Positions 1-47,323 of a DNA stretch of 64,000 bases are shown piece by piece. Both the position numbers and the translations under genes were made by a program. Under the pieces are notes generated by a model, which was not told the DNA's origin, ran no database searches, and saw only the letters and a list, made by a program, of their open reading frames with translations. Positions within the stretch are counted from its first letter, which is position 1, and each line of letters starts with the position of its first letter. The stretch is from Daucus carota subsp. sativus (taxonomy: Eukaryota; Streptophyta; Magnoliopsida; Apiales; Apiaceae). The DNA lies in contig NC_030385.2 of NCBI RefSeq assembly GCF_001625215.2, positions 44,975,598-45,039,597 on the forward strand. Direction: 5' to 3'.

Positions 1-1165
1 CAAGGGATGCAGTTGTTTCCAATACGGGACTAATTACTAATTTCTCTCACTTTACCATACTCAAACCTTAGAAGTCCACCGGCTATCTTTTATTACTTTT
101 TCATTCATTTGAGGAGGATTACTTATTTATTTGATACCACCCTCTCAATCAGTATTATTAGTCCAATTAAATGAACCATGTGGTGATAAATTGTAGACCA
201 TGGATCAACTTCAGAAAAATAAAGTCCAATATTCTGGGGATTTGGGATTATCCTGCAATCTAACAATGAGATGATAATGTAATTATATGCTGTTCCCAAC
301 CTAATGTAGCACATTACAACAGAACACAACCATTAACCACAGTTCTCAATATTGGCATCAGTAATCCTAAAATAGAATATTGCACATTATTTTTCATTAT
401 AAAAATTATTCTGATACTGGCATAAGTACCAATACCCAATATTGCCAATATATTTATTAAAATTTCATGAGCAATACTGTGTCAGGAGAAGGTTACATGT
501 CCTGTAACTGACAGGCTAATTGCAGAAACAAACCCAACAACTGAACACATACCCAAATTTCCTTTCTTTCGTAGTAAGTTCTCCAGAAAAAAGAGCTGCT
601 TTGCTTTTAAAAGAGCTTGTTTAGGATGTAAAAGATGAATGCCGAACCTATATAATCAAATATAAAATAAAACAAAAACTGGAAGGTCAGTAAAATATTA
701 CAGCAATGGTAATACTAACTAGTAAATAGTAATTGAATCAAAAAGTACTAGACAAGTGCTAGAAAGTAACAGCGAGGAGAAGCCTGCTCGGGATTGAAGA
801 CCACAGTTATAATAGATATTATCAAGTTGAGATTTATGAAAATAGTGGGAAGGCAGATACTGTTGCTTTATATAATCTGTTGCTTGATGAAAGAATGATG
901 ACCACAGCAAGGACATATGTATATGAGATATATACATATATATACACACACACATATTTATATTGCTGATATGAGAATCTAACGAGTATGGCACATGGAC
1001 TGACAAATAGCATAGTTCATATGTATATTTAAGACTACATACAACAATAAAAAATGCACACCAAAATACTTAATCAGTCTCGAACCAACTAAAGAAAGAA
1101 TTTATAGTTTTACAACTTCGTGGTTTGCTGAATATAAATTCTTATCAGCTTTTAAACTTGCACAG
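1..1165. other. non-coding AT-rich stretch
   Basis: No open frame here resembles a protein. If the SNF2 fragment that begins at 1166 came from a complete gene, its N-terminal exons should lie here, and I see none. A short TA/CA-rich microsatellite-like run lies at about 917-962. Confidence 0.6.
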
Positions 1166-2532
1166 GTGACTGAGCAGCCTTCTATGCTTCTGGGTGGAGA
1201 ACTCAGTGCATATCACCTGGAAGGACTTGAGTGGATGCTTAATTTGTTCAATAAGAATTTGAGTGGAATATTGGCTAATGAGATGGGGTTGGATAAGACA
1301 ATCCAGACCATCTCCCTGATTGCTTATCTAATGGAGAACAAGAATGTGGCTGGACCGCACTTGATTGTGGTCTCAAAGGCTGTACTATCATATTGGATGA
1401 TTGGATTCAGTACTTGGGTTCCTAGGTATGCTTATAGATAAATAATGTTATGCTTTTTTGTCAAACTGTATGTAAATTGCTTTTTGTATAACTTAGTTTC
1501 ATGTTCCAGCATTATTGTTGTTCATTATGATGGCCGTGTGGAGGAGAGAAAGGTACTGAGGGATGCATATTCAGGAAAGGAGAAATTTAATGTATTGATC
1601 ACTGACTTTGACATGGTTATGAGAGATAGAGCATATCTTAAAAAAGTTCAGTGGCAGTACATGTTTGTTGACGAAGGACATAGGCTAATCACTTACGAAT
1701 CTTTTGCAAGGGCTGTCAACTCGGGGTAATTCTGACTGCATCACAACTTAGTCTCTTATTTACTTCTTATTTATTTCATACCTGGTGCTTGTGCATAAAT
1801 ATGTTTGTTTATTAAGGATATGCTTCTGAAGGTGGAAACAAGTTATTGTTAGTTAAAGTGTATAAAGAGATAGATAGAAATAGATATATAACTATTTAAC
1901 TTGTTTAAGATTCGTGTCATATGCAGTTTTAAAATACGAAGGAAAATTTTGCTGAGTGGAAACCCAGTTCCAAATAGTTCACAGGAGTTATGGCCACTGC
2001 TTAACTTTGTCCTACCAAACATCTTCAATTCAGCTGAGAATTTCGAGCTGTGGTTTAATGATCCCTTTGCAGAGGGATGTGATGTTTCTCGTACAGATCA
2101 AGAGAAGTTAAGGGTCATTTGTCGTTTGCAACATGTGAGTGTTACGTAATAGTGTATCATTCTATATATCATGTTACAAATCTGACATGATAATTATTTG
2201 TTGAATGTCAGGTTTTAAGGCCATTCATGTTGAGTAGGAAGAAAATGGATAATGAAAGGCCAAAAGAGAACAACAGACCTCGACTCATGGAAGAAAACGA
2301 GGTACCAGAATGGGCATATCCTCAGCCTGACCTAAATAACACCGGGGATTATAAAAGTGCCAATGTCAGTGGAAAGAGATGCTGGGAGCCGGTGACATGG
2401 AATATTCACAAAAGAAAGAGGTCCAGCTGCATTTATATGCCTCCGGTGACATGGAATATTCACAAAAGAAAGAGGTCCAGCTGCATTTATATGCCTCCTC
2501 ATGCAGTTCTAGGTTCAGCAAATGTTGTCTAG
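1166..2532 (+). pseudogene. SNF2-family chromatin-remodelling ATPase fragment (CHR12/CHR23-like), second helicase lobe deleted
   Basis: Four exons join in one frame: 1166-1425, 1510-1725, 1927-2134 and 2212 to the TAG at 2530-2532, all with GT-AG borders. They encode the first lobe of a SNF2 ATPase of the plant MINUSCULE type: [20 protein letters not shown], then [45 protein letters not shown] and VLRPFMLSRKK. Normal family members have MGLGKT at the ATP-binding P-loop; here the second glycine is aspartate, which should abolish ATP binding. Straight after SRKK the frame jumps to KMDNERPKENNRPRLMEENE followed by VPEWAY. In family members that segment lies beyond the Helicase_C lobe, so lobe 2 is missing. 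The 5' exons are absent too. The last exon carries a 54-bp in-frame tandem duplication and ends shortly before a transposon remnant. This is a decayed or at best inactive paralogue. The family call is strong; loss of function is inferred. Confidence 0.85.
2389..2496 (+). repeat. 54-bp tandem duplication, two identical copies
   Basis: Copies lie at 2389-2442 and 2443-2496. The unit starts CCGGTGACATGG and ends TTATATGCCT. Because 54 is a multiple of three, the SNF2-fragment frame stays open and repeats an 18-residue segment, PVTWNIHKRKRSSCIYMP. The two copies look identical, so the duplication is recent. Confidence 0.95.
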
Positions 2533-3331: not shown

Positions 3332-4600
3332 TTCATCTTATTGCTATGGTAAGCTTACACTTGGAATTGAATATTGTATCTGTGCAATTTAAACTACACA
3401 GTTTCAACAACTCTGCTGACCGTTGCTTTAGTAACGGATTGCACCCGCTCTGAATAACAAGAAGCAGCTTCGCCGCTAGGCCTGCATCAACAGCCAGTGC
3501 TCAAATATTGCCCACAAAATTGATAACGCTAGATGAGTACAATTCTTCGAAATCTTCATCAACAACTTGACAACTATTGGAATGGTGTTGGGACATTCCT
3601 TCAAAGCCAGCCTACCCTTTGGAAAGGATGAACAAGACTTCAAGGATGTGCAATGCTAACTCTAAAGATTCAGCATTCAAAGTGGGCAACATCTCAACCG
3701 GTTGAGGAACAACCCCAATACTCACCACCGAGCTTCTCAAACCTTCATCTGAACAAATCTTCTTCAATAACCGGAGTCCAGATAATACACCATTCGGGTA
3801 TCTCTTATCCTTCACTAGCCTCAACAACCCTACCAAAATACTCAGACTTGAAACAACTTCTGCCTTAGAATCCTTACCCTCAATCAACATTTCAATCAAT
3901 TTTGTGCAATTCATCTTCGTATCAATCGACCCCTCATTCAATATATCCACAATCAAAGATATCTTAGTGGGTTGAATCAAATTACTAATTGCATCCGAAT
4001 TGAGTTCCAAATTTACCAATATCCCAATTACATCAGACCCAACAGCATGAGTAGTAAAATTACCCAATAAACCAGATAAAAAGCTTACCCCACCATTCTC
4101 CACAACTGTCTTCTTTGCAAAATCATGCGTGATTACAACTTGCTTCAGCTCCCTCAAAGAATGAACCCTAGCTTCACCTTAACCTTCTTCAATGTTTCCA
4201 AAATCTCTAAACCCTCCCTTGCACATCCTCTGACCTCTTCTTGATAGCCTCATACTTCTGCGAAAACCAACTATAACTCAACTGATACAAAGTACTACTA
4301 GGAGTAACAGAATCATCCCAAAGCACCTGCATTATAGTAGGACAAGTAAAATGGCCTAAAGAGAACCATTTCAAAATATTAGACCTTTCATAAGTCTGAC
4401 CTGTACAAAGGGTCACAGGATCTTGCATTGGCTCCAAAGAAATAGGAAAAATAAACACAGGTGGAGTCTCAATTGAATCCAACTCTTCAATCATCTTACC
4501 AAGATCCAACTTTTCTCCAGCCCCACCACCATTCACAACCAACCCACCTCCCAAGATCCCATCTTTCCCTGCAGTTCCAAGATATATCACCTGCCCCCCA
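3332..4600 (-). pseudogene. U-box/ARM-repeat E3 ubiquitin ligase pseudogene (PUB30/31-like)
   Basis: Read leftward, the sequence follows an intronless plant U-box protein from near its N terminus to its last residues. The Gly-rich start (LGTAGKDGILGGG) is followed by the U-box (FIFPISLEPMQDPVTLCTGQ, TYERSNILKWF, CPT) and then the ARM-like part (LRELKQVV, LIEMLIEGKD, GLRLLKKICSDEGLRSSVVS). The C-terminal tail survives to about 3340 (SKCKLT). The frame is broken at least three times. After SEDVQGRV (about 4207) a lost T makes a stop; around 4165 an A is missing from a LKKVKGEAR-type segment; at about 3612-3617 an extra G stops the frame after LSKG. A segment corresponding to a conserved Pro-Glu-Glu-Cys stretch near 3455-3470 is also deleted. 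In function such proteins transfer ubiquitin from an E2; this copy cannot make the full protein. Confidence 0.9.
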
Positions 4601-6563
4601 CCACCATTACCCTCTTTGTCTATGGAGTTTCCTCTTTCTAGGATCCTTCTGGGTTTGATGCGGAATGAGTACTGGGGCTGGAACCTTCCTCAAAGGCGCG
4701 TCCTTTGTTTTGGGCTTTTTCTGCTTGGAACCACAAAGGCCAAAACCTTTTGGAAGCTTGTCTATTTCTGCAACAATAAAAGGAAGAAATATTTAAAAAT
4801 AGAAGAGGATGAAGTTATGAAAGCAAAAAAAAGTATTTTATACGGACATGAAAAAACAGTAGCAACAAAGATGTGTATTTGGTAGATAGAAAAGGGTTTT
4901 AGGGTTTATGTAGGGTTTAGGGTTTTAGTTATGTATTATTTGTTGAACATCTTATACATTGATATAAACAATAGTCAGAGGGAGGCAAAACACAAGAGCA
5001 AGAGAGCAGCACAACATTCGCTGATGCTTTGTCAGGTTTACTGGTCATGCATACAGTTTGGGTATTAATACATACTAGTATATTATAAGATATTCAACTG
5101 AATTACGATTACCTAAATGCCAAGTTGGCACTGCAGACCACTAAGACTGGAATTAATTTATTGCATACCCAGGAGATTGTTGCTTCCCTAAAAAACACTT
5201 ATCAATTTATACCCATTTGTTTTGAGCTGATGGGAGATGAATGATCTGACTCTGACTCGGTCATATGATTCAGCTCATTTGAGGCCAATTTTTATCACAG
5301 AGAATGGATCAGAATTAACTGACTCGCGCAGCTTCAAAATCCTATCTGAGCGAATCATGTAATTGCATGTCATCTTGTTTAGTTCTTCTCACCCTCTTTT
5401 AATTAATAATAATTTTTTGCAAAATTGATTTAAATTTTAAACCGAGTATATTATTTATTAAAGTATAATATGAATTTCAGAATTTTCTCAAAATATTTTG
5501 AAAATAAAACAATAATTATAAATATTGTCAAAAAACTTTAAAAATTATAAAATAAGTATATCATGTGACTAGGTGATATAGTATAGATCCTTAAAAAAAC
5601 ACAAAATATTCATTTTAGAATTTATTTACACATTTATTATTTTTATGTAAAATATATAAAATTGTATGTCGAAAAAAATCATTCAGATAATTTAAACATA
5701 AATACTTAACAAACAGTATTTTTGATTCAACATTCAGACTGCTTATTGATTTGATTCATTCAGATGTATTAATCATTCAGTTCAAATTTGCCAAATGACC
5801 CCTAAGTTATTGTAATTATGCAAAATATATGTAGTATATGTACAACATGTGAATTCAACCCACATTCCAAAACCAAGCTCATGCCCAGAATGCTGAATGG
5901 TATGATAATGGAATTTTAAGGAAACAGATTAAAAGCTAGAACCCATACTAAAATCAGCACAAATAATTATCATAACAACTATCGATATGAAACAGTCGAT
6001 CAAACAAGAACAGAATAAATTTATGATTCTTTACTAACTACTAAGTAACTGCAAATTCCAAAACACACCATAAATCATGAAATTAATATAATCAGAATTC
6101 ATACCAATCATTTAGATAATTAAATTGGAAAATTCATCACACACCCCAGATCCACTAAACCAAAACCCAAATGCAATAGAAACAATTTTTAAATCTGCCA
6201 TAATGATAGATGCTGCAGTAGCACAGATATATTCCATGCTGAGCAGCTCAAATTGCATACTCTCAATAAAGCAGCAAAAAAACAACCAATCATATCATAT
6301 TTATATAATATCAGGCAATTAGCAATCAAAATTAGCATACAATTACTAAACTCCCAGAATTTCAAACCCCATCTCCCCAAAAAACTCACTTTGTAAAGAA
6401 AACATCAAAACAATCAACCCCCAAAAAATTAATCTGCATTACACACACATACACACACAAGATCAAAATCAACCGATTTTACCATATAACAGATTAATAC
6501 ATTCATATATCAACTTCAAGAACATATTTTAACATTAGTATAGTATAAAAACGTGAAATTTAC
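4601..6563. other. gene-poor spacer with a possible coding relic
   Basis: At 4640-4760 the minus strand gives a lysine/proline-rich stretch (KLPKGFGLCGSKQKKPKTKD and onward) that looks coding but that I cannot assign. The rest, especially 5400-5820, is very AT-rich. I found no further SAP30-like exons here, although they would be expected downstream of the exon at 6564-6758. Confidence 0.4.
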
Positions 6564-8177: not shown

Positions 8178-9221
8178 CTAATACTTCACCCTGCGGTAAC
8201 CGCCAACAACCATGGCATGCCCTTTCCCTATAGGTTCCAACATGACATGTTCGTATGTCTCGAACTCCATCCTCATGAAGTTGGGAAGTTTTTCGTGGTC
8301 TGCAAATGGATCTTTAACTTGGCTAGTCAAATTGATGTTTCTTGCCTGTAATTCACACAAGTAGCAACACGATTCAACTCCTAAAGACATTATTACGTTG
8401 CAGACTTAATACAACAAATATCATAAAAGAAAATATACCCGTGTGGAGATCAAGTAATGACCACCAGTTTTAAGATGTAAAAGAGCATACCTAGCTATAT
8501 AATTCACCTGCTCAACACAAAACCACAATCACAAATATTTTAGAAACATTACATCTAAGAAAAATATAACAAAGTACATGATTTTATCTCTAATGCAATC
8601 ATGAAGAAGTCACCAAGCATCAAATATAAAATCTTCAGTTCCCATTGTAAATTCAAAAATCACCAATAATCCAAAATTTGAAAACCACAAAACTATACCA
8701 CCCATCAAGTCTTAAACGGTACTCCATAAGCTAAAATTGGCGGGGATGATAAAATAACCAAAACCAAAAATGGAATAATGAACAATACAGGAGAAGATCA
8801 TAGAGCATTTCAAAATATCAATTTATAACCATAGCATTTAAACCGAAACTGTGCATTAAGATCTAGGTAAATGAGCAAGTTCATTACCGTGCAACTTGCT
8901 AATTTTCAATTGGCTCACAAGCTTAAAAACATTTCCAGATAAACACTTGTATTGTGTAAAACTTTCATACCAATTTACACAATTAGTCATGTTACGGAAA
9001 ACTGACATGGATGTTGACACACTAAAACAGATTTTGATGGCTAATTAATCACTCAACTTTGTACCAGTTTTCAGTTGGGACGTTGCTAATTTTATTTTAA
9101 ATTAATTAAATTTAAATTTACCCTAATACCTATTTAATCCATATTTTTAAAAGACTAACTTATAAGCCGTGCAAAGCACGGGATACTTTTATATATTTTA
9201 TTATTATTATATAATTATATC

Positions 9222-9255
<34 letters not shown>

Positions 9256-12200
9256 ATTATATTTGATTTATTTATTCTTTTGATAACTTTTTTAAGATTA
9301 GATTTTAACTTTATTTATTTATATCTTAGAAGCTAATATTATAAACGTTTAAATATAAGATGATGTTGGCGAGATTCGAACTTGAGACCTTTTTATAGCA
9401 TAACTTATACTATTTAATCTAAGGGTTCTCGTCAATCTGGCTAAAAATCTAATAGTTGTGATTTAAAGAAAAACCAAAAATGGAGTGTTAACCAAATTGC
9501 AAATTATCCCATATTTTGCTTATTTTAGTATAATATAGATACCACAGTTTTCACTCCAAAATTTCTTCGATACTGATGATTTGTATCAACAATACAAATT
9601 TTTTGAATATTTAAATCTTTTCCAAATGATAACACTTTATCGAAATTCAACATTGTACAAACTCATTCGATTCGTATGCTTATAATTAGCTTGCTTATTA
9701 AAAAAAAATAGTGGACATCATATTATGGGTGAGAAAGAACCTGCCAGGAGGGATCGGGATAAACGATATCACCAAGGATCACATCCACCATACCAACAAC
9801 CATGCGGTAATCCATACCAACATCCATGCGGTAATCTCTATCATTAATCACGCTATAATCCTTACGAAAGAAATAATTTCCAGGAAGTGTTACAACATTT
9901 GACCTCTCCTCCACCGTGTTTGCAACAGCATCTGACAACCCAATTACATAGACCAAACCATCCTGCAAATGAAACATATGTTCACAACTAGTACTAAAGC
10001 ATATTTAAACAACTAGGCTATGAATAAATGAACGCACCAAATGACTTACCAAGCCAACAAGATCAGACAATTGTAAAACTGTAATTCCACAAACATCTCC
10101 TAGGTATAAAACGTGAGAGCCGGGTTTCTGAAAAACATAAAACAGAATAAATGAAACAATAAATATAAATTAATCAATTGCATAACTCATTTGCTATTGT
10201 ATATTTATGATATATGATAATACTTACAACCCATATATTAGAAAGACCCCCTAGTACTGCAGCAGCCAACTTTGACACATGTGGATTCCACACTCTGTAC
10301 TCAACTTCAGTTCTATCATCCTCATTCTGAAATAAGACAATTTATATATATATTGTATCTCTAAAAAATAAAACTAGGTCACACATTTCGTCAAAATGCA
10401 ACAAAAAAATGTTGTGTTATTGAGTGTTTAACATTTGATAACACTATAAAAAGGATCATTTGGCCATAACCTACACTTCTAAACTTCTAAATGCTTCAAT
10501 ATTTTACAATTTAGCCCTTTAGTGGCTAAATGTTATAATTGCTCAATCTTTATTTGCAAATTAACACAATGTCAAATCAACACATGTTTAGACAAATACT
10601 AACCATACATAAATTGGTAAATTAATTCACCTGAATGGATATCAATTGGTCATCGTAAAGAAGTTTACCAGGTACTAAATTTTTAGTACAGATAAAATTC
10701 TTTTTACCCAAACCCTTGGTGATGAAAAGTCCTTCAATTTTATGTGGCTCAACCACAACTTTGTCTGCAACAACATTGTGAAAACTTCTTTGAACTTTGG
10801 AACTTCCTTTGCATGCAAAACTATGTCTACGAAAACTGCGTGCCAAATTAAATTGAGCCATTTTCAAGTCCCCAATCTAGCGAAAAGAAATCACCGAATT
10901 AGTTAGCAGGGATCATATATAATCTACTACAGAATATTTTTTGGAAGGAAAGTAAACGCAAACCTCCAAGCCGACGATGAGTTTGTCAATTTTCACCCGC
11001 AAACCACGCATGACATGATCGATTATTTGACCGGCTATGACATTTTTCCTTGTTGCAAAACTTATAGTTTGTACCAACGTTGGATTTGAAACTGCAAGCA
11101 CATAACCAGATCTTGGTTCTGGAATATTATCCGCTACGAAACGTTTCAGCTCCTTTGTCACGGTTGCTGCAAACAATATATGAGATATTACATAAAAGAC
11201 ACACATGGAATAGAATATAAGAACACATAAATAAATCAATAACCACTTCATTTATTCACTTACAGTTGCATATAGCCTTCATTTGAACGAGAGCGTCACT
11301 AGGAGATGGAAAGCGATAAAAAGCTCTAAGCGTAAATGGGTTGTTATTGAGATACTTCTCAGCTATTTTGAAATTGGTCAAAGCTCCAGGATATTTATTC
11401 ATTCCACGAGCATCGAAAAGAGCATATCCCAAAGCCAGTTCAAAAAGAAAAACATAATGCTGGAATTCCTCCTGATCTGTCTACATAAATTAAGAAATAC
11501 AAGTTAGTTGCATTGCAAGAAGTGGTAAGTATATTAATTGGTGCTTATGGGGTGTTTGTGAAACTTTTTTGAAAAAGAAAGAAGTTCCAAAATGGTCCCT
11601 ATTTATGGGTCCAATCCAATACTTTAATATTGTAAAAATTACACCAAAAGAATAGTGACACCAAATTTGGTATCAAAAGTACATTTGGAGTAATTTTATA
11701 CAAAATCTGGCATGTCTTTCATAATCCTACAATGCCCAAGTGTTTGTAAACAAAAAAAAAAAAAAAAATTATCCCTCCATGTCCCATTTATCCTACTTTA
11801 TCCCAACAAAACACTTACTTTTGAAAATTTGAGAACAATATGTTTTCCTTTGTTTTGAACTTAAGATTTAAATTATGCACACATTTTTTTAATTTCAAAA
11901 TATACATTATAAGGACCTGTGCGCACATGCTCAGTCCCGGCTCTATGGGTCAGAGATGGTCCCATTACAAATCTATATCACTCTTTGAAATAAACGACCC
12001 CTAATTACTTTGAGAATAATAAACAAAAAAAACAAAACATAATTTACCATATTGCACATGGATGGCTCTGGTGCATCACCATCTACTCTTAATCCTGCTG
12101 GAGCAGGGGCCGGGGCCGGAGCTTTACTCTAAATGAACAAAGTAGCTAATGAAGCAATTCTCTAAAATTACAATTACAAAACAATAACACGAGAACAAAA

Positions 12201-12778
12201 TAAATAATTTACCTTACTACCCGGTTTCGATGTAAATTTATCTTCAACTGCAGCACGACCTGATTTCTGCCTTAAAATATCAAGACGACTATAAAAACGA
12301 TTTTTCGAATATTCCTCTTCAACACGGCGACGATTTTCCATCAATTTTAATTTTAATTCCAAATCCTATGATTGGAAAACACAAGAATTTCAATTCACAG
12401 TTTGACTGGTATATCTGAAAATAAGATTTTGAATAGGAAAAAAAATCAAAAACACTTACCCTATTGCAAAAGGTCGTCCCTGCATCATCTACATTAACTT
12501 TTTTCCGCGGAGCCGAATCAGGAGCAGCATGAGCTTTTCTCTGAATGGACAAAAAAAATGAAGCAATTCCCTAAATTACAATCAAAATAATAACAAAAAA
12601 ACAAAGGATAAATTAAACAATTTACCTTATTTCCGCCTGGTTTAGATGTAAATTTATCCCCATCAGGACCTGCTTTCTGCCTTAAAATATCAGGCCGACG
12701 AGGAACACGGTTTTTCAAATATTGCTCTTGTACTCGGCGACGATTTTCCACCAACTTTAACTTTAATTTATCATCCAT
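8178..12778 (-). CDS. NOP56 N-terminal domain fused to a fibrillarin-like methyltransferase, with a duplicated basic N-terminal module
   Basis: Twelve exons, all GT-AG, give one uninterrupted frame of 589 codons: 12626-12778, 12460-12540, 12213-12365, 12048-12128, 11264-11480, 10964-11166, 10631-10876, 10228-10326, 10050-10127, 9741-9962, 8439-8507, 8178-8345. Residues 1-156 are two copies of a basic 78-residue module (KLKLVENRRRVQEQY, DILRQKAG, DKFTSKPG) that I do not recognise. Residues about 165-318 match the NOP56 N-terminal domain (ELALGYALFDARGM, SPSDALVQ, LAVSNPTL, VMRGLRVKIDKLI, GDLKMAQFNLARSF). Residues about 335-589 match fibrillarin from KVVVEPHKIEG through EYRVWNPHVSKLAAAVLGG, KPGSHVLYLG, YRMVVGMVDVILGD, LKTGGHYLIS and LEPIGKGHAMVVGGYR. 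The usual Gly-Arg-rich fibrillarin N terminus is missing, as are the NOP56 coiled coil and Nop domain. Several cofactor and catalytic residues differ (G-D-V-C-G-I-T in motif I, Glu to Gly at 445, Lys to Arg at 534; Asp502 and His577 kept), so methyltransferase activity is doubtful. Expected location is nucleolus or nucleus, by inference. Confidence 0.88.
9154..9539 (-). mobile_element. small Helitron-like element inside an intron of the fusion gene
   Basis: Read on the minus strand it begins TCTATATTATACTAAAATAA and ends with the hairpin CCCGTGCTTTGCACGG followed by CTTATAAGTTAGT. A TC start plus a GC-rich 3' hairpin is the Helitron pattern; the final CTAGT is imperfect. It lies in the 1.2-kb intron between the two last fibrillarin exons but one (8508-9740). 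Inside, at 9363-9400, is AGTTCGAATCTCGCC, a tRNA B-box-like motif, and a TTA microsatellite lies at about 9196-9250. Confidence 0.45.
9789..9836 (-). repeat. 24-bp in-frame tandem duplication in the methyltransferase domain
   Basis: Units at 9789-9812 and 9813-9836 differ at one base. They repeat the eight residues DYRM(D/V)VGM (residues 480-495), just before the conserved VDVILGD strand. Fibrillarins normally carry this YRMLVGM segment once. Confidence 0.9.
12048..12778 (-). repeat. tandem duplication of a two-exon unit
   Basis: Exons 1 and 2 (153 and 81 bp) and exons 3 and 4 (153 and 81 bp) have identical lengths and phase, with similar protein: LKLKLVENRRRVQEQYLKNR against LKLKLMENRRRVEEEYSKNR, and both DKFTSKPG. 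The short exons end FCNR and MCNM. A genomic block with both introns was evidently duplicated. Confidence 0.9.
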
Positions 12779-12910: not shown

Positions 12911-12978
12911 CTACGGTACTCGTGCCCAATAAAATTATTAATATTTCAGTTTTAATAAAATAATAATAATAATAATAA

Positions 12979-13381
12979 GAGTAAAGTTCCATGGAGACCA
13001 TTTTTATTGGAGACCGTGGAGACCACTTATGTTCAGCAAGTGAAATATTGCATAAAAACATTGCAAAACGTATAGTTTTGCACATCATGTTTTACAAAAT
13101 CATTATTTCACTTTAAAATCTTGAATATCATATAAGTTTCGCATGTAGAACATTACAAAATGTTATATTCCACGAAATATATTTAGTTTGCAGGACATTG
13201 TTCAACTTGCAGAACATACATTATATACTTATGAAACATAGATGATCTTCAACAATTTTAATGAATACATGATATTTGTTGAACATACTTCACAAAATAA
13301 TGTATTTTATAGTGTTTTGATTGCAGAACATAAATGGTCTCCACGGTCTCCAATAAAAGTGGTCTCCATAGAACTTTACTC
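12979..13381. mobile_element. inverted-repeat MITE about 200 bp upstream of the fusion gene
   Basis: Left end GAGTAAAGTTCCATGGAGAC and right end GTCTCCATAGAACTTTACTC are inverted repeats of at least 50 bp that contain a further GGAGACCGTGGAGACCA palindrome. The element sits in a TAA microsatellite, so the target duplication cannot be measured. Its location makes it a candidate promoter element for the gene at 8178-12778. Confidence 0.75.
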
Positions 13382-13688
13382 ATAATAATAATATATAAGA
13401 GTTTTATATTTGGAAGATTTTGATTGGTGTGGTGATTGTATATGCGGGAGGAGTCTACCATTATTAAGATATGAGAGTCAATAAAATTGAGTCAAATTTA
13501 TAAAATTCCGCGTTTATCATGTGTCCATTGACACACACTAGAAAAATTGTATATAGTATAGACACACACTAGAAAAATCGTATGTCAACATATGTATAAT
13601 TTGTAATTCAAAATTTTGGTTAGTATAAAGTAATCAACAAAAACGGAACTCGGTACGAATAACTCGTACAACAGATTAGCAATCCACA

Positions 13689-26903: not shown

Positions 26904-28683
26904 TTATGGGTCAAGGTATATGATTTCGGCTCGCACTGAAGCTCTTCTGAAACGCAGCAATTCTTTTAGCAACTCGCATCCACCAATAGCTGCAGCAGGT
27001 TTGATGGTCATCTTCTCCAACACAGGTGAATTTGCGAGCAGAAAGTTGACAAAATTTAGTTCCTGCTTAGCATAAGATATGCCAACCAATTTCACAAGTT
27101 GCAGTTGATTGAATGGGCAATTATGGAAGTACTCTTCTGAAATGCGTGCATCTCTTCCATCTACAGCCTGGTCATCTGGGCGCACCTGCATCAAGTAAAT
27201 TGAAGAAGAGAGAATAAATCAAGGCACAATTGTCCAGACTCCAGAGACAACTGTTGCCTACAATCAAATTAAATATGAACTCGATGATTATTATTTATGC
27301 ATTTACTGTTACAACAACTCACTAAAATCTCAAGTTCTTGCAGGTTAGGTGAGCTTCGAAGTATACAAAGAGCTCCCAGACTCTCTGCACGGTCGCAGAA
27401 ATTGATGCGGAATGATAGGTAATTAAGCTCAATGCAAGGAGTTGGAAGTCTTTCTGGAACTTTACCAGCAGCCAAATACTGCAGACGAATATAGAAAAAA
27501 GATGTGTGACATTAGCAACATATATAAAGAGAGTTTAATACTTGTATTGATACTGAAAATATAAAACTATATTGCAGCAACGGTTACAAGACATGGAACT
27601 TTGCTTATTTGATAATGTAGAGAAACTAAATATGTGAATCTTCACCGAGAAACCGTATTGTATTTAGTAGAATGTTTGGACAGAAAACCTTTAGTAACAG
27701 GGAAATACTTAACTATGATGAAAACAAGAATTACTTTCATATGCAACCATATAAAATTCAAAGTGAACTATATACACCCTATCTGGCTATCCTAATAATT
27801 AGTTGCAACCATATAACATCAATCAAAATGAAGTATCTAAACCCTGTCCTAAAAGTCACGGATATGTTACCTTTAAAAAGAAACTCTGCACCTCAAGCCT
27901 TTGAATACGAGGCAGAGGAGCAAAAAACTTGATCATATTTCCAGTACTGCCAAGAGCCGGATTTTGGTCATATCCAGCAGTTGCATACAAGCCAATGGAA
28001 ACAATAGCAAGATTATTAGTTGCATTAAAATTGACGTCTTCAAAAACACCTCCAATATCGAAGAACAGGAGATAAGGAGCATGTATGTTAAGTTGTGAAA
28101 ACCCATCAAAATTCATCAAAGTAAGCCGCTCAAGTAGTGTACAACTAGATATCAGATTATCAAATACATCTTGTTCCATAGTAATGTGTTGAAGATCAAG
28201 GCTCTTCAAGTTCTTAAACCCATTAAATGGTGTAGGAGGTCTTATCATGCAGTTGAAAATTTCCAGATGAATCAACTTCTGGCAGGAGTATAAAGAAGCT
28301 GGTAGCTTGTACCGATGACCCTTCCATATTTCTAAAATGAATTCCTTCAATGATCCTCTTGACAGAAAAAGAATCCATCTATCGATGTCATTTACACCTT
28401 GAAGATCTCGGTGAGAAAGCTTGAACTTTTGTATGGGACCAGAGTGGAGTAATAGGACATGATCAACAATGTTAATAAGTTTATTTCTAATGAGTGTTTG
28501 ATCTTGAGAAGAAATCAAGAGAGACTGGTTATCAAATACAAGTTGTGGAAGACTAATCCACTTGTATCTCCATTTTCTTGAAAGTATACTTGTCCTCACG
28601 GCATCCCTCAGCGATAAACACGACAAAATTTTGTCTGTAATATGCTCTGGTAGATTGCTGATATAGTCTATATCCATTTCCAT
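26904..28683 (-). CDS. F-box/LRR/FBD protein (At1g13570-like)
   Basis: Three exons, 27871-28683, 27323-27478 and 26904-27185, give 416 residues. The F-box is at residues about 6-50: ISNLPEHITDKILSCLSLRD followed by AVRTSILSRKWRYKWISLP. Leucine-rich repeats follow (KLIHLEIFNCMI, NLKSLDLQHITM, LLERLTLMNFDG), and the C-terminal exon is an FBD-type tail (NQLQLVKLVGISYAKQELNF, LLANSPVLEKMTI). Such proteins are substrate receptors of SCF ubiquitin ligases; the target is unknown. The frame stays open upstream of the chosen ATG (KRRDPPKVPCK) up to an AG acceptor at 28717-28718, so the true start may lie in an upstream exon, as in relatives that begin MRKRREPPK. I see no damage. Confidence 0.88.
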
Positions 28684-29015
28684 TTTACAGGGGACCTTCG
28701 GCGGATCTCTTCGCTTCTAAAAAAATTTAGAAAGAATCATTTCTCAGCAACCAAAGGATACATGTACCAAATTTGCAGATTAAACAGTTATTTGGAGCAG
28801 ATGCCAAAGTTCAAAGAGACTAATATAGACTCCATTGATTATCTGTTATCAGTGCAGGCTATCAAACATGACTCGGGGTGTCAAATATCAAGAGATGGGA
28901 AATACTTTTTATGTTTTAGAGCATGAAAATTCAGAGTTGAGTTCTAAAGTTGAAGTCAACACTATAGGAAACTGTATATAATTTTATTAGAAATGCTGAA
29001 GAGGGTGGTTTTGAT
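28684..29015. other. upstream region of the F-box gene
   Basis: Contains the candidate acceptor at 28717-28718 and otherwise non-coding sequence. A 5' exon of the F-box gene may lie further up, around 30.5-31.1 kb, but cannot be placed. Confidence 0.35.
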
Positions 29016-42234: not shown

Positions 42235-45164
42235 AATTTTGGGTCAGCCTTTTGATAGTTGTGTATCATTTGGTTTCATCTTAGGATTTTAAGATGGCCT
42301 AAAGAAAATATACTGTTGATAGGAGAAGAGACATACATATATATTCCTTGTAAATTTATTCTTTTTGTGTACTGCTGATTACGTAATAAAATTATTCTTG
42401 TTTTAAAAAAATATAAATAAATAATCAGCTCGTCAACAATATCTCTACCGCGTTTAGTCAAACACAAACAGCACCACAGAAGGTAACTTAAGTTCACTTC
42501 CTAATGCAAAATTTGATATTGTAAAATCTAAAATATTTGCAACTCGAATATAAGATAAAGATACAGTTTTAAGTGAATGATGCACCATCTTTATTTTTTA
42601 TTCTTTCTTTATGTATTAACCACGAATACTCGTCAAAGACGGTTGATTTTGTTCAATTGGATGATGAGAAAAATACGCATCCAAATTATTTTGAAATTTT
42701 GATGATTTAAAAAGTATTATTTCAATAAATTTGTCGGAATGAAGTAAGTTATGGTAAACAAATATATACTCACTTTGTCTCTCTCATTTATTTACAGTTT
42801 TTTTCACTGCTCGACACGTTAAGGCTCTTATAAAACATAATTTTGTAATTTATTTTTGAAAATTTTTTTTGTGTATAAAAATTCAAATATAAAATATTTA
42901 TTCAAAAGAAAAAAAATTAAAAAATAAATTACGGAACTATGCTTTTGTGATTAACAAGATTTCTTTTCTTCCGTTTCTTGTGTGGTCAGGTATTTAGAAG
43001 AGCATATCCGGTGCCTGTGGGCCAAATATGAGCATTACTAGAAAATAAGTGCCAATAGGGTGCGAGTGTGATATTGTAAGTTGGTGGCATATGTTTAGGT
43101 AAAATAAAATATTAAATATATTGAATTTTAAAATTTTAATATATAACAGTATTATTATGAAAGAGTCGAAGCTTAATATATAATAATAATCAATATATAT
43201 AAAAAGTGTTATTAAATTAACACAATGATCCCCTTACAAAATTAATGGTTAGTAAATAGCAATTGATTATTATTAAAGTAGATTAATTATTTTAATTAAC
43301 TGATTAAGCACATCTAACGAACAGTTTGAATTAGTTGTTTTATTTGAAATTATTTGATAAATAATTACTATTAAATTAGCTTTTTATATATTGACTCAAT
43401 TTGAATTAGCCTTTTATATATTAAGTAGATATAGGTCGGTGTTTTAACTAAATAATTCATATGAATAATTTCTTCTAAATCACTAATTAATCTAATTAAT
43501 TATCAGATATCAATATTAAAGTCACGTGATTCCTTTGATCAAATATCTAGCTCAACCAGATCTCTTAATTTTACTAAAAAGTTTAACGAGCTTCTGAATA
43601 GGATCATACACTTTCGAAAACAAAGTCCACATCACTTATAAATATTCCGTGATGAATAATTGTTACCAAGTACATTTCATAATTTCTGTATATATTATCG
43701 ATAATGTTTTCTTGTGATATATTACATTAATATTAAACCAAAAATAAAAATTGTATACACATATGAGATATGGTATATAAGTTTTATTAATTCTGACTCA
43801 AAATAATTTGATCTCAAAATATGTTATCGAAAATTCAAGTAAATTAAAAATATTGTGATTATTGATATATATATTTAAATTTTTATTTTTTTTGACAGAG
43901 TCGTTTCGATTCTTTGAAATAACTCAGATAAATTTAATAAGTTTTTTTTAAAAAAGACCCGATAGCTCTAGATCAAACTTATCTGACATCACCCGTTTAG
44001 ATAAAAACCTTATCTGACATCAAAATATATATATCAGAAACTCAAGAAAAATTGGAAAAAAAAAGGTTATATATAGAGGTGGTGGAAAAAAGAAATAGAG
44101 CGACCAAACACAGAGCACAAGACAAATAGGATGAGAAGAGAGTTCTGAGAGAAGTGGATCAGATCTAAAACAACACAAGAAAAGAAACCCACTTCCCCAT
44201 AACCCTCATGTCTCTGTACTATGTTATCACAACATAACTCCACTTCTATAAATGAACAACAAAACATAACCCCTCCGTTGTTTATCATAACTCTACTGGT
44301 ACGTAATTCTTGATTTACCCATGTTTCTTTGTCTTTTTTCTTACATCTTTGTATGAATAGATGGATTTGTTTCCTTTTATATATGTCAATACTAAATACC
44401 CTTCATGCAATTTTAACTGTAGTGTCTTTTTGGTTCTTGCTATTTCAAGAACATGATGTGCCTAGTTTTTGTTTTTTTACTGTTCCATTGATTTTTGAAT
44501 GATCCTGATCCTTTTTTGTGTGATTTAGATGTGAAATTTGTAGTCTTTTGTGTGTAATAATTGTGGAGGTAGTGTCATGAAGAATTGTTTTGTATTTTAT
44601 TTTATTCTGTTACAATGCATCTGACCTAAATTGAGGATGTGTGTTTATATATATATTTTTGTTTGTGACTGGAATTTAGAATGTAACAGATACTATAGAC
44701 AAGAATTGGTTATGATTATGATTATGTTTGCGCAATAGGGATATAATACAGGTTCTGTGATAAAATTAGTGTGCGTATGCTTACAAACTTTGAAGAGAAA
44801 TTCAATTGATCTGATAGGACTACATCTTGAATATGAGAGTTTTTCGTTGGCATTGTTTTTAATTAGGTTGTACACCTTTAAACTTCCTGGAAACTTTTAC
44901 CTTAAGTTATAGAGCAATTGTCATAATGAACATATAAAATAAGTTTTTGATTGTGATTCTCCTGATTCAAACGAGGCAGGTTAAGTCTACTAATAAGGCT
45001 CTACTATTCTCTCCCATCTTGGCCATGTACATCTCTTCCCTGCTATTGAGATCTAGAGGTTACATTGTTATGCTCTTGTGATGGTTCTAAGGATCTTTTT
45101 TAAAAATCACAGATGCTACAGTGACTTATTGGGGGAGAGTCAAGGCCACTGCATTTGGAAGAAG
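42235..45164. other. spacer between DA1 and LPAT, with a Stowaway relic and the LPAT leader
   Basis: At about 42770-42965 a Stowaway-like relic shows CTCACTTTGTCTCTCTCATT and, facing it, GGAACTATGCTTTTGTGA-type sequence similar to other copies. 43.0-44.0 kb is AT-rich and featureless. 44050-44300 probably holds the LPAT 5' untranslated exon, ending near CTACTGGTACGTAAT, with an acceptor ATCACAG just upstream of 45112. Confidence 0.4.
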
Positions 45165-47323
45165 ATGGAAGCATCAAAGACCCTCAGCACAACTGGACTA
45201 AAGCATAGACCATTGACTCCATTCAGGATATTGAGGGGTTTGATATGTTTAGTCATATTTCTTTCTACGGCATTCATGTTTATGGTTTATTTTGGACCTG
45301 TGTCTTTCCTGTTGTTGCGCCTTTTCAGCATTCACTACAGCAGAAAAGTAGTGTCATTCATTTTTGGTCATTGGTTGGCTTTGTGGCCCTTCTTGTTTGA
45401 AAATATTAACGAAACTAAAGTTGTCTTTTCTGGAGAGACTGTTCCACCTGGGGAACGTGTTTTGCTTATAGCGAACCATAGAACTGAGGTTGATTGGATG
45501 TATCTATGGAATCTTGCTTTCCGAAAGGGGTCCCTAGGATACATTAAGTATGTCCTCAAGAGCAGTCTGATGAAATTACCTATCTTAGGTTGGGGGTTTC
45601 ATGTGCTTGAGTTCATTTCAGTCAAGAGGAAGTGGGAAATTGATGAATCAACCATGCACCAGAGGCTTTCGACTTTCACTGATATAAGGGATCCACTATG
45701 GCTTGCTGTATTTCCGGAAGGGACTGATTTTACGTAAGGCACTACCCCTTGTACTGTCTTTTTAGTATTTGATGTTACGTTTGTCAAAATGGATTACCTA
45801 CTGAAGAATGTGCTCCTCCCATATTTGATGTCTGCATACAGACAACAGAAGTGTGAAAAGAGTCAAAAGTTTTCCGCGGAAAATAGATTACCTATACTGA
45901 AGAACGTGCTTCTTCCTAAAACAAAGGGTTTTCATGCTTGCTTGGAAACTTTAGCCAACTCCTTGGATGCAGGTATAATTTCTTTACTCGGCATATTATG
46001 ATGTATAAATTGACCATTAAGTATTGTAATTAGGTGTTTACTCGGCGAACTTGTGTCTGATGTATTCTAATACTGACAGACCTGTATATCACTACATTAC
46101 TGTTATATCTTTTCATCTTTAGGAAAGGATTTGTATGCCTTAACTGAGACTTCTAGCTGCCAAAGTTTGGTGTTCCTTCCATTTTTTTTTCAAAGTGTCG
46201 AGTTCATGTTTGTTGGTTGATCAACATATTGTCTCTTTACCTAAGAAAAAATTCCATGCGTAGATTGAGGCATTTAACTGCCCAAGTTTGATGTTTCAAT
46301 AAACTCTGTTTCAATAAGAATATTGTGTTGATAATTTGCATGTATGGATATTGGATAGTCATGGTACTAGTTATTGCATGTAAGAGTCTCATGTTGATAC
46401 TCTATAAACAGGGTCTTGTGTGTAGGAGTTTAGTTGACGAGGTTCTAGTTGAGAGTTTAAAATTCTTATAGAGAGCTGAGAGGTGGTATAAGAGGGTTTG
46501 GAGATAAGATTGTGTTGGTAAAGTTGGGTGTGGATTAGGTCATTGAGGACAAAACCCCTTGCATGGTTCCATATCTTTTTATGTGTGTTATAAATTTTTT
46601 TTGTTAATTCTGAACAGTTCCTTAGCAGTGATTTTTACTTCCCAATCTCCCATATATAAGTAGCAAAGAAAATAAGACATGCAGCTGCTTTAATTAGATG
46701 GAAATAATTCTTCCAAGAATAACAGCATCTATAACATTTTCTCTACCTATTTTTGGTTCAAGTTGCACAGCATCACATGTGTAATGAGACTAAGACCAGT
46801 TAGTTTAGTTGCAGCATCACGTGTAAATTGATGTTTTTAGTCCTGTTCTTGGATTCTCAAGTGCTCTCAATGTGTCTCAGTTTACGATGTGACTATCGCC
46901 TACAAATATCAGTGCCCCCATTTTCTGGACAACGTTTTTGGTGTGGATCCTGCAGAAGTTCACATTCATATTCGACGTATACCTGTTGCCGAGATCCCCT
47001 CTTCAGAAAGTGAGGTTGCTGATTGGTTGATGGATGCTTTCGTTCTTAAGGACCAGTTGCTCCAAGATTTCAATTCTCGAGGTTACTTCCCTAGTCAGAT
47101 AACAGAAAAAGAAATTTCAACATCAAAAAGTTTGGTAAATCTCACTGTAATTGTCGCCCTGACTGTTGTATTTACATATCTGACCCTTTTTTCATCTTTC
47201 TGGTTCAAAATATACATAGTTCTCTCTTGCGTATCCCTTGCTTCTGCCACGTATTTCAGTATTCGACCAACACCAATACTAGATTATGTCAAAGCAGCTG
47301 TATTTCAAAGGAAAGACAAATAG
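45165..47323 (+). CDS. LPAT4/5-type 1-acylglycerol-3-phosphate acyltransferase
   Basis: Exons 45165-45733, 45842-45972 and 46881-47323 give 380 residues, the normal size of plant LPAT4/LPAT5. An N-terminal hydrophobic pair ([20 protein letters not shown] and the next segment) precedes the PlsC domain. The catalytic motif NHRTEVDW places His105 and Asp110 in the H-x4-D box; the substrate motif FPEGTDFT is at about 183-190. A conserved FHACLETL block and a C-terminal hydrophobic segment ([18 protein letters not shown]) follow. The enzyme adds an acyl chain to lysophosphatidic acid in the endoplasmic reticulum membrane to make phosphatidic acid for phospholipids and storage oil. The start is set by an acceptor at 45111 and the first ATG of the conserved protein; the frame is open further upstream. 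It converges with the protease gene at 48470-57193. Confidence 0.94.
45790..45835 (+). repeat. partial exon copy within the first LPAT intron
   Basis: ATTACCTACTGAAGAATGTG then CTCCTCCC lies in the intron just before exon 2 and closely resembles ATTACCTATACTGAAGAACG then TGCTTCTTCC inside exon 2 (about 45887-45917, encoding [10 protein letters not shown]). It looks like a small local duplication. Confidence 0.7.

What the first reader, a model, noticed from the sequence alone, without database searches (positions are those of the whole stretch)
8178..12778. A single gene fuses the NOP56 N-terminal domain to fibrillarin
Seen: one 589-codon frame across 12 well-spliced exons carries NOP56-like residues (about 165-318) directly before a full fibrillarin fold (about 335-589). 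Known: in archaeal and eukaryotic box C/D RNPs, the N-terminal domain of Nop5/NOP56 binds fibrillarin and places it on the guide RNA. Inference: the gene links two normally separate partners covalently, but drops the NOP56 coiled coil and Nop domain that contact NOP58, the 15.5K protein and RNA. The product could be a self-contained capture or decoy module, a competitor of the normal complex, or a nuclear factor with a new role, since plant fibrillarin also acts as Mediator subunit 36. I do not know of a described fusion of this kind.
Basis: partly seen in the sequence, partly recalled or inferred. Interest (0 to 1): 0.95.

Follow-up and report, generated by a model that had tools for sequence, protein, structure and literature searches.

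The report
NOP56 arm fused to dead fibrillarin
A carrot gene joins the fibrillarin-binding arm of NOP56 to a fibrillarin that has lost key enzyme residues, and it belongs to a fast-changing gene family whose named members here come from the carrot family, broomrapes, clovers and a flax, which suggests a decoy of the ribosome-modifying machinery that may have moved between unrelated plants.

Summary
The window is carrot DNA. One 12-exon minus-strand gene (12778-8178, 589 codons) encodes a NOP56/58-type N-terminal domain (residues 167-318) followed by a fibrillarin fold (335-585); no Nop domain was found. NCBI annotates the same gene (LOC108223397) as uncharacterized.

It is not alone. Twelve carrot loci carry both domains side by side (two may be one locus doubled in the assembly), plus one partial, in two orders: NOP56arm-fibrillarin (class A) and fibrillarin-NOP56arm (class B). 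One class B copy is an intronless retrocopy with an A run and a target-site duplication, so a spliced fusion mRNA existed. Named relatives came from Apiaceae, Orobanche, Trifolium and Linum perenne. In both domain trees they form one clade apart from the canonical genes. Intron positions point to plant NOP56 and fibrillarin parents.

The fibrillarin half looks inactive: class A lacks the SAM-binding Glu (0 of 51 rows), class B the catalytic Asp (0 of 13). The gene evolves fast (omega about 0.6, against 0.02-0.1 for canonical genes). Intermixed Orobanche and Trifolium sequences suggest horizontal transfer, though old paralogy with loss is not excluded.

Best reading: a pseudoenzyme mimicking the NOP56-fibrillarin module as a decoy or competitor. 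Its function is untested.

The parts
8178..12778 (-). Whole coding gene, 12 exons, 589 aa plus stop (LOC108223397)
12626..12778 (-). Exon 1: start codon, basic N-terminal unit copy 1 (helix 2-22 in the model)
12460..12540 (-). Exon 2: basic segment, unit copy 1
12213..12365 (-). Exon 3: N-terminal unit copy 2 (same length as exon 1)
12048..12128 (-). Exon 4: N-terminal unit copy 2 (same length as exon 2)
11264..11480 (-). Exon 5: NOP5NT domain
10964..11166 (-). Exon 6: rest of NOP56/58 N-terminal domain
10631..10876 (-). Exon 7: end of NOP56 arm, junction, start of fibrillarin in one open exon
10228..10326 (-). Exon 8: fibrillarin
10050..10127 (-). Exon 9: fibrillarin SAM motif I, altered (canonical LGAASGTT reads LGDVCGIT here)
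9741..9962 (-). Exon 10: fibrillarin; the SAM-binding Glu position is Gly
8439..8507 (-). Exon 11: fibrillarin; second catalytic Lys position is Arg (canonical ISIK reads ISTR)
8178..8345 (-). Exon 12: fibrillarin C-terminus and stop
10811..11450 (-). NOP56/58 N-terminal domain, residues 167-318 (spans introns; coordinates worked out from the exon table)
8193..10762 (-). Fibrillarin-like domain, residues 335-585 (spans introns; coordinates worked out from the exon table)

Best explanation
The gene is an intact nuclear gene of carrot and one member of a family, undescribed as far as I could search, that fuses the fibrillarin-binding arm of NOP56 to a catalytically degenerate fibrillarin. It arose when the 5' part of a plant NOP56 gene (exons 1, 2 and the start of 3) was joined inside an exon to a plant fibrillarin gene after its GAR region (shown by intron positions and the in-exon junction). 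The two domains probably pack on each other in one chain, as NOP56 and fibrillarin do in the box C/D RNP (inferred; both domain orders occur, as expected if the folded pair is what is kept). Without a Nop domain and with a damaged SAM site it is unlikely to be a guide-RNA methyltransferase by the known route (inferred from lost residues). It most likely acts as a nuclear mimic of the NOP56-fibrillarin module, either a decoy for factors that bind that module, for example plant-virus proteins that use fibrillarin, or a competitor of the normal RNP (inferred). The family has probably passed between broomrapes and host plants (inferred from patchy distribution and gene trees). My own split: real fusion gene 0.97; no normal methyltransferase activity 0.85; at least one horizontal transfer 0.7; decoy or competitor role 0.5, of which pathogen decoy about half.
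For: Gene and domains. Fold: class A model mean pLDDT 76.4, pTM 0.71, with both domains mostly above 80 apart from a dip around 464-480 and another at 537-540; it matches both 6zdt_A (fibrillarin) and 6zdt_B (Nop56 NTD). Class B model (Trifolium P0168): pLDDT 68.8, pTM 0.71. Family in carrot. Two orders: 79 of 185 fetched proteins, isoforms included, carry both domains (64 of 164, 15 of 21; recount), 61 with the NOP56 arm first and 18 with fibrillarin first (two of the 18, P0019 and P0088, are serial repeats). Intronless retrocopy of a class B fusion. Lost residues: SAM Glu kept in 0 of 51 class A rows with a residue there, catalytic Asp in 0 of 13 class B rows, against 19 of 19 and 18 of 18 canonical rows (rows include isoforms). 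Single clade apart from canonical genes: 100/99 in the careful concatenated tree, 98 in the quick FIB tree, 95 in the quick NT tree. Patchy taxa. Tree conflict with vertical descent. Fast evolution. Fibrillarin as partner of plant virus proteins: abstract starts (PMC8483311, PMC5875058).
Against: No interaction, localisation or expression was measured. The NOP56 half has omega 0.87 (0.58-1.50) between the window gene and its C8 paralog L023, so it may be drifting; the pair L017/L018 gives 1.12 (0.66-2.67) and L027/L028 gives 2.2 (0.6-8.1) on very few changes. Some members keep single catalytic residues: the Asp is kept in 33 of 49 class A rows, both Lys in 7 of 53, and the Glu in 7 of 10 class B rows, so loss of activity is inferred, not uniform. 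In subfamily A1, to which the window gene belongs, the Orobanche gracilis sequence falls outside the Apiaceae sequences, as vertical descent would also give.
Confidence: 0.55

Rival explanations
1. Two neighbouring genes or an annotation error that looks like a fusion.
For: No RNA reads could be aligned here.
Against: The junction lies inside one open exon. NCBI has the same model. Relatives in other species have the same order. Five contigs of 1.6-2.0 kb tagged lgn hold open frames of 436-554 aa through both domains, too short to hold the introns, as spliced transcripts would. A retrocopy preserves the spliced class B message.
Confidence: 0.03
2. An active, self-contained 2'-O-methyltransferase with a built-in NOP56 arm that works on some RNA without the usual guide RNP.
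For: The fibrillarin fold is complete. In class A the first Lys is kept in 52 of 53 rows and the catalytic Asp in 33 of 49 with a residue; 7 of 53 class A rows, five of them from Linum, keep both Lys.
Against: In class A the SAM-binding Glu is kept in 0 of 51 rows (47 are Gly) and motif I is changed in all 50 rows with residues there; the second Lys is kept in 7 of 53. Class B lacks the Asp in 13 of 13. The window protein has Gly for Glu, Asn for the second SAM acid (in a stretch with an insertion, so this column is less sure) and Arg for the second Lys.
Confidence: 0.08
3. A decaying by-product: an accidental fusion that duplicates and drifts without a function.
For: High omega overall (0.61), near 1 in the NOP56 half, about 1 for L017/L018; one copy is a broken retrocopy.
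Against: Open frames over 10-12 exons are kept in the three carrot loci that mapped exactly to a database protein (3 of 8 locus-protein pairs tried), and two-domain proteins are annotated in ten named species. Omega in the fibrillarin half is 0.52 with a bootstrap interval of 0.33-0.74. The main class A replacement, Glu to Gly, is shared across genera (47 of 51 rows).
Confidence: 0.2
4. Concerning distribution: the family is old and vertical, and was lost from nearly all other plants, so no horizontal transfer is needed.
For: Several subfamilies each hold Apiaceae and Orobanche sequences, as ancient paralogs would. O. gracilis P0010 lies just outside the Apiaceae A1 sequences.
Against: It would need many losses: the class B search scored all of its 3543 candidates (those sharing words with the query) and its two-domain hits come from Apiaceae, Trifolium, Orobanche and one unnamed source. 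O. hederae P0048 groups with Heracleum P0033 inside carrot P0027 (100/98; 99/96), and O. minor class B lies between Heracleum and carrot+Trifolium; both conflicts are backed by AU tests. P0010 is nearly as close to the window protein (62%) as a carrot paralog (65%) whose dS to it is 0.31, below the 0.66 and 0.83 of carrot's own canonical duplicates; this argument assumes similar protein rates.
Confidence: 0.25
5. A competitor of the cell's own box C/D RNP, tuning rRNA methylation, rather than a decoy for pathogens.
For: It keeps both partner domains of the NOP56-fibrillarin contact and lacks the Nop domain needed for RNP assembly. Basic stretches of nuclear-localisation type occur in the tails of relatives (read by eye in the sequences).
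Against: Fast evolution and many copies fit a conflict better than a housekeeping regulator. No binding data.
Confidence: 0.27

Closest known systems
Eukaryotic fibrillarin with the Nop56 N-terminal domain (PDB 6zdt) and archaeal Nop5-fibrillarin (2nnw, 3id6)
   Same: Same two domains by sequence and fold.
   Different: Two chains there, one chain here; here enzyme residues are degenerate and no Nop domain was found.
Plant fibrillarin (FIB1/FIB2, also named MED36)
   Same: Fibrillarin domain with the same five intron positions, compared by eye with two carrot genes.
   Different: GAR region replaced by the NOP56 arm; altered SAM and catalytic residues; omega 0.5 against 0.02.
Plant NOP56
   Same: N-terminal domain with the same two intron positions and phases, compared by eye with one carrot gene.
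   Different: Stops after the N-terminal domain; no Nop domain (PF01798) found.
Published horizontally transferred genes of Orobanchaceae (PMC6294234)
   Same: Orobanche minor took up host genes with introns; its hosts are mainly Fabaceae, clovers above all, and among others Apiaceae (passages read).
   Different: That study compared Fabaceae hosts for O. minor; 'fibrillarin' does not occur in its main text (term search).

Membership tests
Fibrillarin (PF01269) | Profile match above the curated cut-off | tested here: met
   158 bits against 27, residues 338-585
Fibrillarin (PF01269) | SAM-binding and catalytic residues of a working methyltransferase (residue roles recalled) | tested here: not met
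   Window protein: SAM Glu is Gly, second SAM acid is Asn, second Lys is Arg; first Lys and Asp kept
Fibrillarin (PF01269) | GAR region of eukaryotic fibrillarin | tested here: not met
   Upstream of the domain lies the NOP56 arm; the canonical carrot gene has a Gly/Arg-rich stretch there
NOP56/NOP58 N-terminal domain (NOP5NT, PF08156) | Profile or chain match | tested here: met
   Pfam 25 bits for the whole protein, slightly under the cut-off of 27; 28.8 bits for the exon in the genome search; phmmer to Nop58 chain E 4.9e-8 over 167-317; fold match 6zdt_B. Of 9 relatives scanned, 7 exceed the cut-off, one (P0168) scores 25.8 and one (P0088) has no NOP5NT row
NOP56/NOP58 proteins | Nop domain and coiled coil | tested here: not met
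   No PF01798 match at E up to 1, and after residue 318 the chain goes on as fibrillarin; the coiled coil was not tested by a program of its own
Box C/D RNP component | Binds guide RNA, 15.5K protein, or the partner core proteins | not testable with these tools
   Needs pull-down or RNP reconstitution
Horizontally transferred plant gene | Patchy distribution and gene tree in conflict with the species tree | tested here: inconclusive
   Both seen, but hidden paralogy with loss is not excluded and no flanking DNA from the other species was available

The most novel reading that the evidence does not exclude
A fast-evolving, catalytically dead mimic of the NOP56-fibrillarin core of the box C/D RNP, made in two domain orders, circulates horizontally among broomrapes and the plants they live on, and protects or manipulates the nucleolus as a decoy.
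Probability: 0.3. Interest if true: 0.9.

Novelty: new variant of a known kind. Interest (0 to 1): 0.75.

Why it matters
Fibrillarin and NOP56 are highly conserved nucleolar proteins (in carrot, omega 0.02-0.1 between duplicates). A family that fuses their contact domains, damages the enzyme site, keeps both domain orders and appears in broomrapes, clovers, a flax and Apiaceae would be a natural test of what the NOP56-fibrillarin contact does apart from methylation. It would also be a strong candidate for repeated gene movement through parasitic plants.

Tried and rejected
Mobile-element carrier: the C2 and C7 class B copies share a 26.3 kb block at 99.65%, but the block also holds other open frames and its C2 end abuts a run of N, so it may be a segmental duplication or an assembly effect. 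The C9/C1 class A pair shares only the gene-sized 4.26 kb at 92.6%, and I saw no terminal repeats or target duplication at its ends by eye. No carrier element was shown.

Viral carrier: no relative of P0001 in the viral contig collection, a search that finds close relatives only.

Papers: one search listed 13 papers and one search listed 2, none about such a fusion by title and abstract start; searches returned 0 papers. PMC13192451 (Orobanche genomes; term search only) has neither 'fibrillarin' nor 'horizontal' in its main text. Searches were seen as listings and abstract starts, apart from the two papers searched by term.

Host contamination of Orobanche records: O. minor was grown on Trifolium pratense. 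The class B copies of O. minor differ from the Trifolium ones, and a close copy exists in O. hederae, so I reject contamination for them.

Limits: searches scored only the roughly 8000 candidates sharing most words, and one search listed 120 of 542 hits, so distant fusions in other plants may be missed. The codon filter biases dN down (it gave 0.52 for window-L023 where the unfiltered alignment gives 0.61); the canonical controls used that filter too. Exact mapping of database proteins failed for 5 of 8 pairs and for both canonical fibrillarin pairs. In one search I used 41 of the 79 two-domain proteins; isoforms, fragments and near-duplicates were left out by hand, and two of the three canonical rows pair a NOP56 and a fibrillarin from different species. 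The groups tested were chosen after seeing earlier trees. The viral structure library and VIA-align were not used.
Full report
What is there. The window lies in a carrot chromosome (G000:C5:44975598-45039597; the encoded protein is NCBI's LOC108223397 of Daucus carota). On the minus strand, exons at 12626-12778, 12460-12540, 12213-12365, 12048-12128, 11264-11480, 10964-11166, 10631-10876, 10228-10326, 10050-10127, 9741-9962, 8439-8507 and 8178-8345 join into 589 codons and a stop; all 11 introns are GT-AG, 10 in phase 0 and one in phase 1. NCBI's isoform X2 (586 aa) maps on the locus with the same exons except an acceptor 9 nt later in exon 5. Exons 1+2 and 3+4 have the same lengths (153 and 81 nt), align with each other as protein and both match one profile: a tandem duplication of a basic tail, in the model two helices with long disordered stretches.

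Domains. Pfam: NOP5NT at 168-228 and Fibrillarin at 338-585, nothing else at E up to 1. Solved structures: Nop56/Nop58 N-terminal domains at 167-318, fibrillarins at 335-585. AlphaFold2 on a 40-row alignment gave pLDDT 76.4 and pTM 0.71, with both domains well folded apart from dips at 464-480 and 537-540. Foldseek matched fibrillarin chains (6zdt_A, TM 0.81 by target length) and Nop56 chains (6zdt_B, 0.73). A class B protein of Trifolium gave pLDDT 68.8 and pTM 0.71 on 21 rows.

Origin. The two introns within the NOP56 part (one phase 1, one phase 0) and the five introns within the fibrillarin part sit where a carrot canonical NOP56 gene (L032) and two canonical fibrillarin genes (L034, L035) have theirs, compared by eye. 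The join lies inside exon 7, between the NOP56 sequence ...DLKMAQFNLARS... and the fibrillarin sequence KVVVEPH.... So intron-bearing plant genes were joined at the DNA level, and fibrillarin's GAR region was left out.

A family with two orders. Searches of the carrot genome gave 28 fibrillarin and 19 NOP5NT exon matches, canonical genes included. Among the window and the fetched loci I found both domains side by side at 12 places: the window, L017, L018, L022, L023, L024, L027 and L028 in the order NOP56 arm-fibrillarin (class A), and L019, L020, L021 and L036 in the order fibrillarin-NOP56 arm (class B); L025 is partial. L019 and L020 lie in a block at 99.65% identity, one end of which meets an assembly gap, so they may be one locus counted twice. 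L036 matches L021 in 12 pieces that lie in order and almost without gaps on L036 but are parted by introns in L021; it ends in an A run, carries a 12-base repeat (TCTATCAGTCTC) on both sides, and is broken by stops: a processed retrocopy of a spliced fusion mRNA.

Distribution. Protein searches found two-domain relatives in Daucus, Apium and Heracleum, in Orobanche gracilis, minor and hederae, in Linum perenne, in Trifolium repens, pratense and subterraneum, and in unnamed contigs tagged lgn and jgi. 79 of 185 fetched proteins, isoforms included, carry both domains: 61 with the NOP56 arm first and 18 with fibrillarin first. The other plants listed appear with fibrillarin or NOP56 without the partner domain, with the limits stated under Tried and rejected. 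Five lgn contigs of 1.6-2.0 kb carry open frames of 436-554 aa; I take them for assembled transcripts, which no tool stated.

Trees. The fusion fibrillarin domains form one clade apart from all 19 canonical rows at 98 (quick tree, SH-aLRT); the fusion NOP56 domains form one clade at 95 (quick tree); the concatenated careful tree gives 100/99. Classes A and B separate in all three (class A at only 89). Orobanche and Trifolium sequences are scattered among Apiaceae ones. AU tests reject one clade for nine class A Orobanche rows (p 2.7e-76), for carrot P0027 with Heracleum P0033 (p 6.9e-4), for O. gracilis P0046 with O. hederae P0048 (p 4.7e-4), for four Apiaceae class B rows (p 9.8e-4), and for Trifolium A with Trifolium B (p 8.3e-91). 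Without the two rows with the longest end branches (P0046, P0045) the Orobanche class A clade is still rejected (p 5.8e-6), and so is a clade of the 13 class A Apiaceae rows, tested only there (p 1.7e-4). These tests reject simple vertical descent of one gene; paralogs older than the species splits, with losses, would also fail them. O. gracilis P0010 is 62% identical to the window protein, a carrot paralog (P0006, locus L023) 65%, and that paralog pair has dS 0.31, less than carrot's duplicated canonical genes (0.66 and 0.83, NG86). With similar rates this is too young for the split of Apiales and Lamiales (age recalled). O. minor lives mainly on clovers and also on Apiaceae (passages of PMC6294234). 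Transfer through broomrapes is therefore my favoured but unproven account. The Linum group has no such link in my data.

Enzyme residues. In the alignment of 85 fibrillarin domains (53 class A, 13 class B, 19 canonical; isoforms included) the SAM-binding Glu is kept in 0 of 51 class A rows with a residue there (47 are Gly), the second SAM acid in 9 of 51, the second catalytic Lys in 7 of 53; the catalytic Asp is kept in 33 of 49. In class B the Asp is kept in 0 of 13, the second Lys in 2 of 13 and the Glu in 7 of 10. Canonical rows keep these four residues wherever a residue is present. The roles of the residues are recalled from the fibrillarin literature. The two classes lost different residues.

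Selection. Between the window gene and L023 (484 codons, NG86) omega is 0.61 (bootstrap 0.46-0.82): NOP56 part 0.87 (0.58-1.50), fibrillarin part 0.52 (0.33-0.74). Controls from carrot: canonical fibrillarin 0.025, NOP56 N-terminal domain 0.07. Other pairs from a filtered alignment: window-L028 0.76 (0.52-1.13), window-L027 0.64 (0.46-0.94), L023-L028 0.55 (0.41-0.77), L022-L024 0.48 (0.28-0.94), L017-L018 1.12 (0.66-2.67), L027-L028 2.2 (0.6-8.1) on very few changes. The family evolves far faster than its parents; constraint is visible in the fibrillarin half and not shown for the NOP56 half.

Mechanism. The retention of both domains in both orders, without a Nop domain and with a damaged SAM site, points to the folded NOP56-arm/fibrillarin pair itself as the working unit. 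A mimic could bind what normally binds fibrillarin or NOP56. Two plant virus proteins are reported to use fibrillarin (abstract starts: p26 of pea enation mosaic virus 2 must interact with it for systemic movement; [quoted passage not shown] a competitor of the cell's own RNP is about as likely. A decaying family without function remains possible at about 0.2.

Verdict. I rate it a new variant of a known kind: known partners, in a fused and damaged form that I found described nowhere, with an unusual distribution.

Noticed in passing
window 12966-13394: A pair of 74-nt inverted repeats (89% complementary, 281 nt apart), like a small MITE, about 190 bases upstream of the start codon.
   Followed up: partly
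L036:256-2119 (G000:C2): Intronless retrocopy of a class B fusion mRNA with an A run and a 12-base target-site duplication; broken by stops.
   Followed up: yes
L019/L020 with L037-L040, L043, L044: 26.3 kb block shared between C2 and C7 at 99.65%, with one end at a run of N in C2: segmental duplication or misplaced haplotig.
   Followed up: partly
P0088, P0093, P0019, P0028: Proteins annotated in Apium, Linum perenne and O. gracilis with repeated NOP56-arm and fibrillarin units in series; tandem copies of this sort could explain how the second domain order arose, or they may be annotation joins.
   Followed up: no
P0036, P0056, P0057: Fibrillarin domains annotated together with PF02985, PF07780 or PF00380 domains; possibly gene-model joins.
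   Followed up: no
L029 and L031 (C9, C6): Two diverged NOP56-like loci, 89.8% identical over 2 kb; L029 has an in-frame stop in the matched stretch.
   Followed up: no
window 1016-1441, 3612-4689, 27856-28716, 45057-47323, 49270-53195: Open frames that by eye look like an SNF2 fragment, a U-box protein, an F-box protein, a lysophosphatidate acyltransferase and a leishmanolysin-like protease.
   Followed up: no
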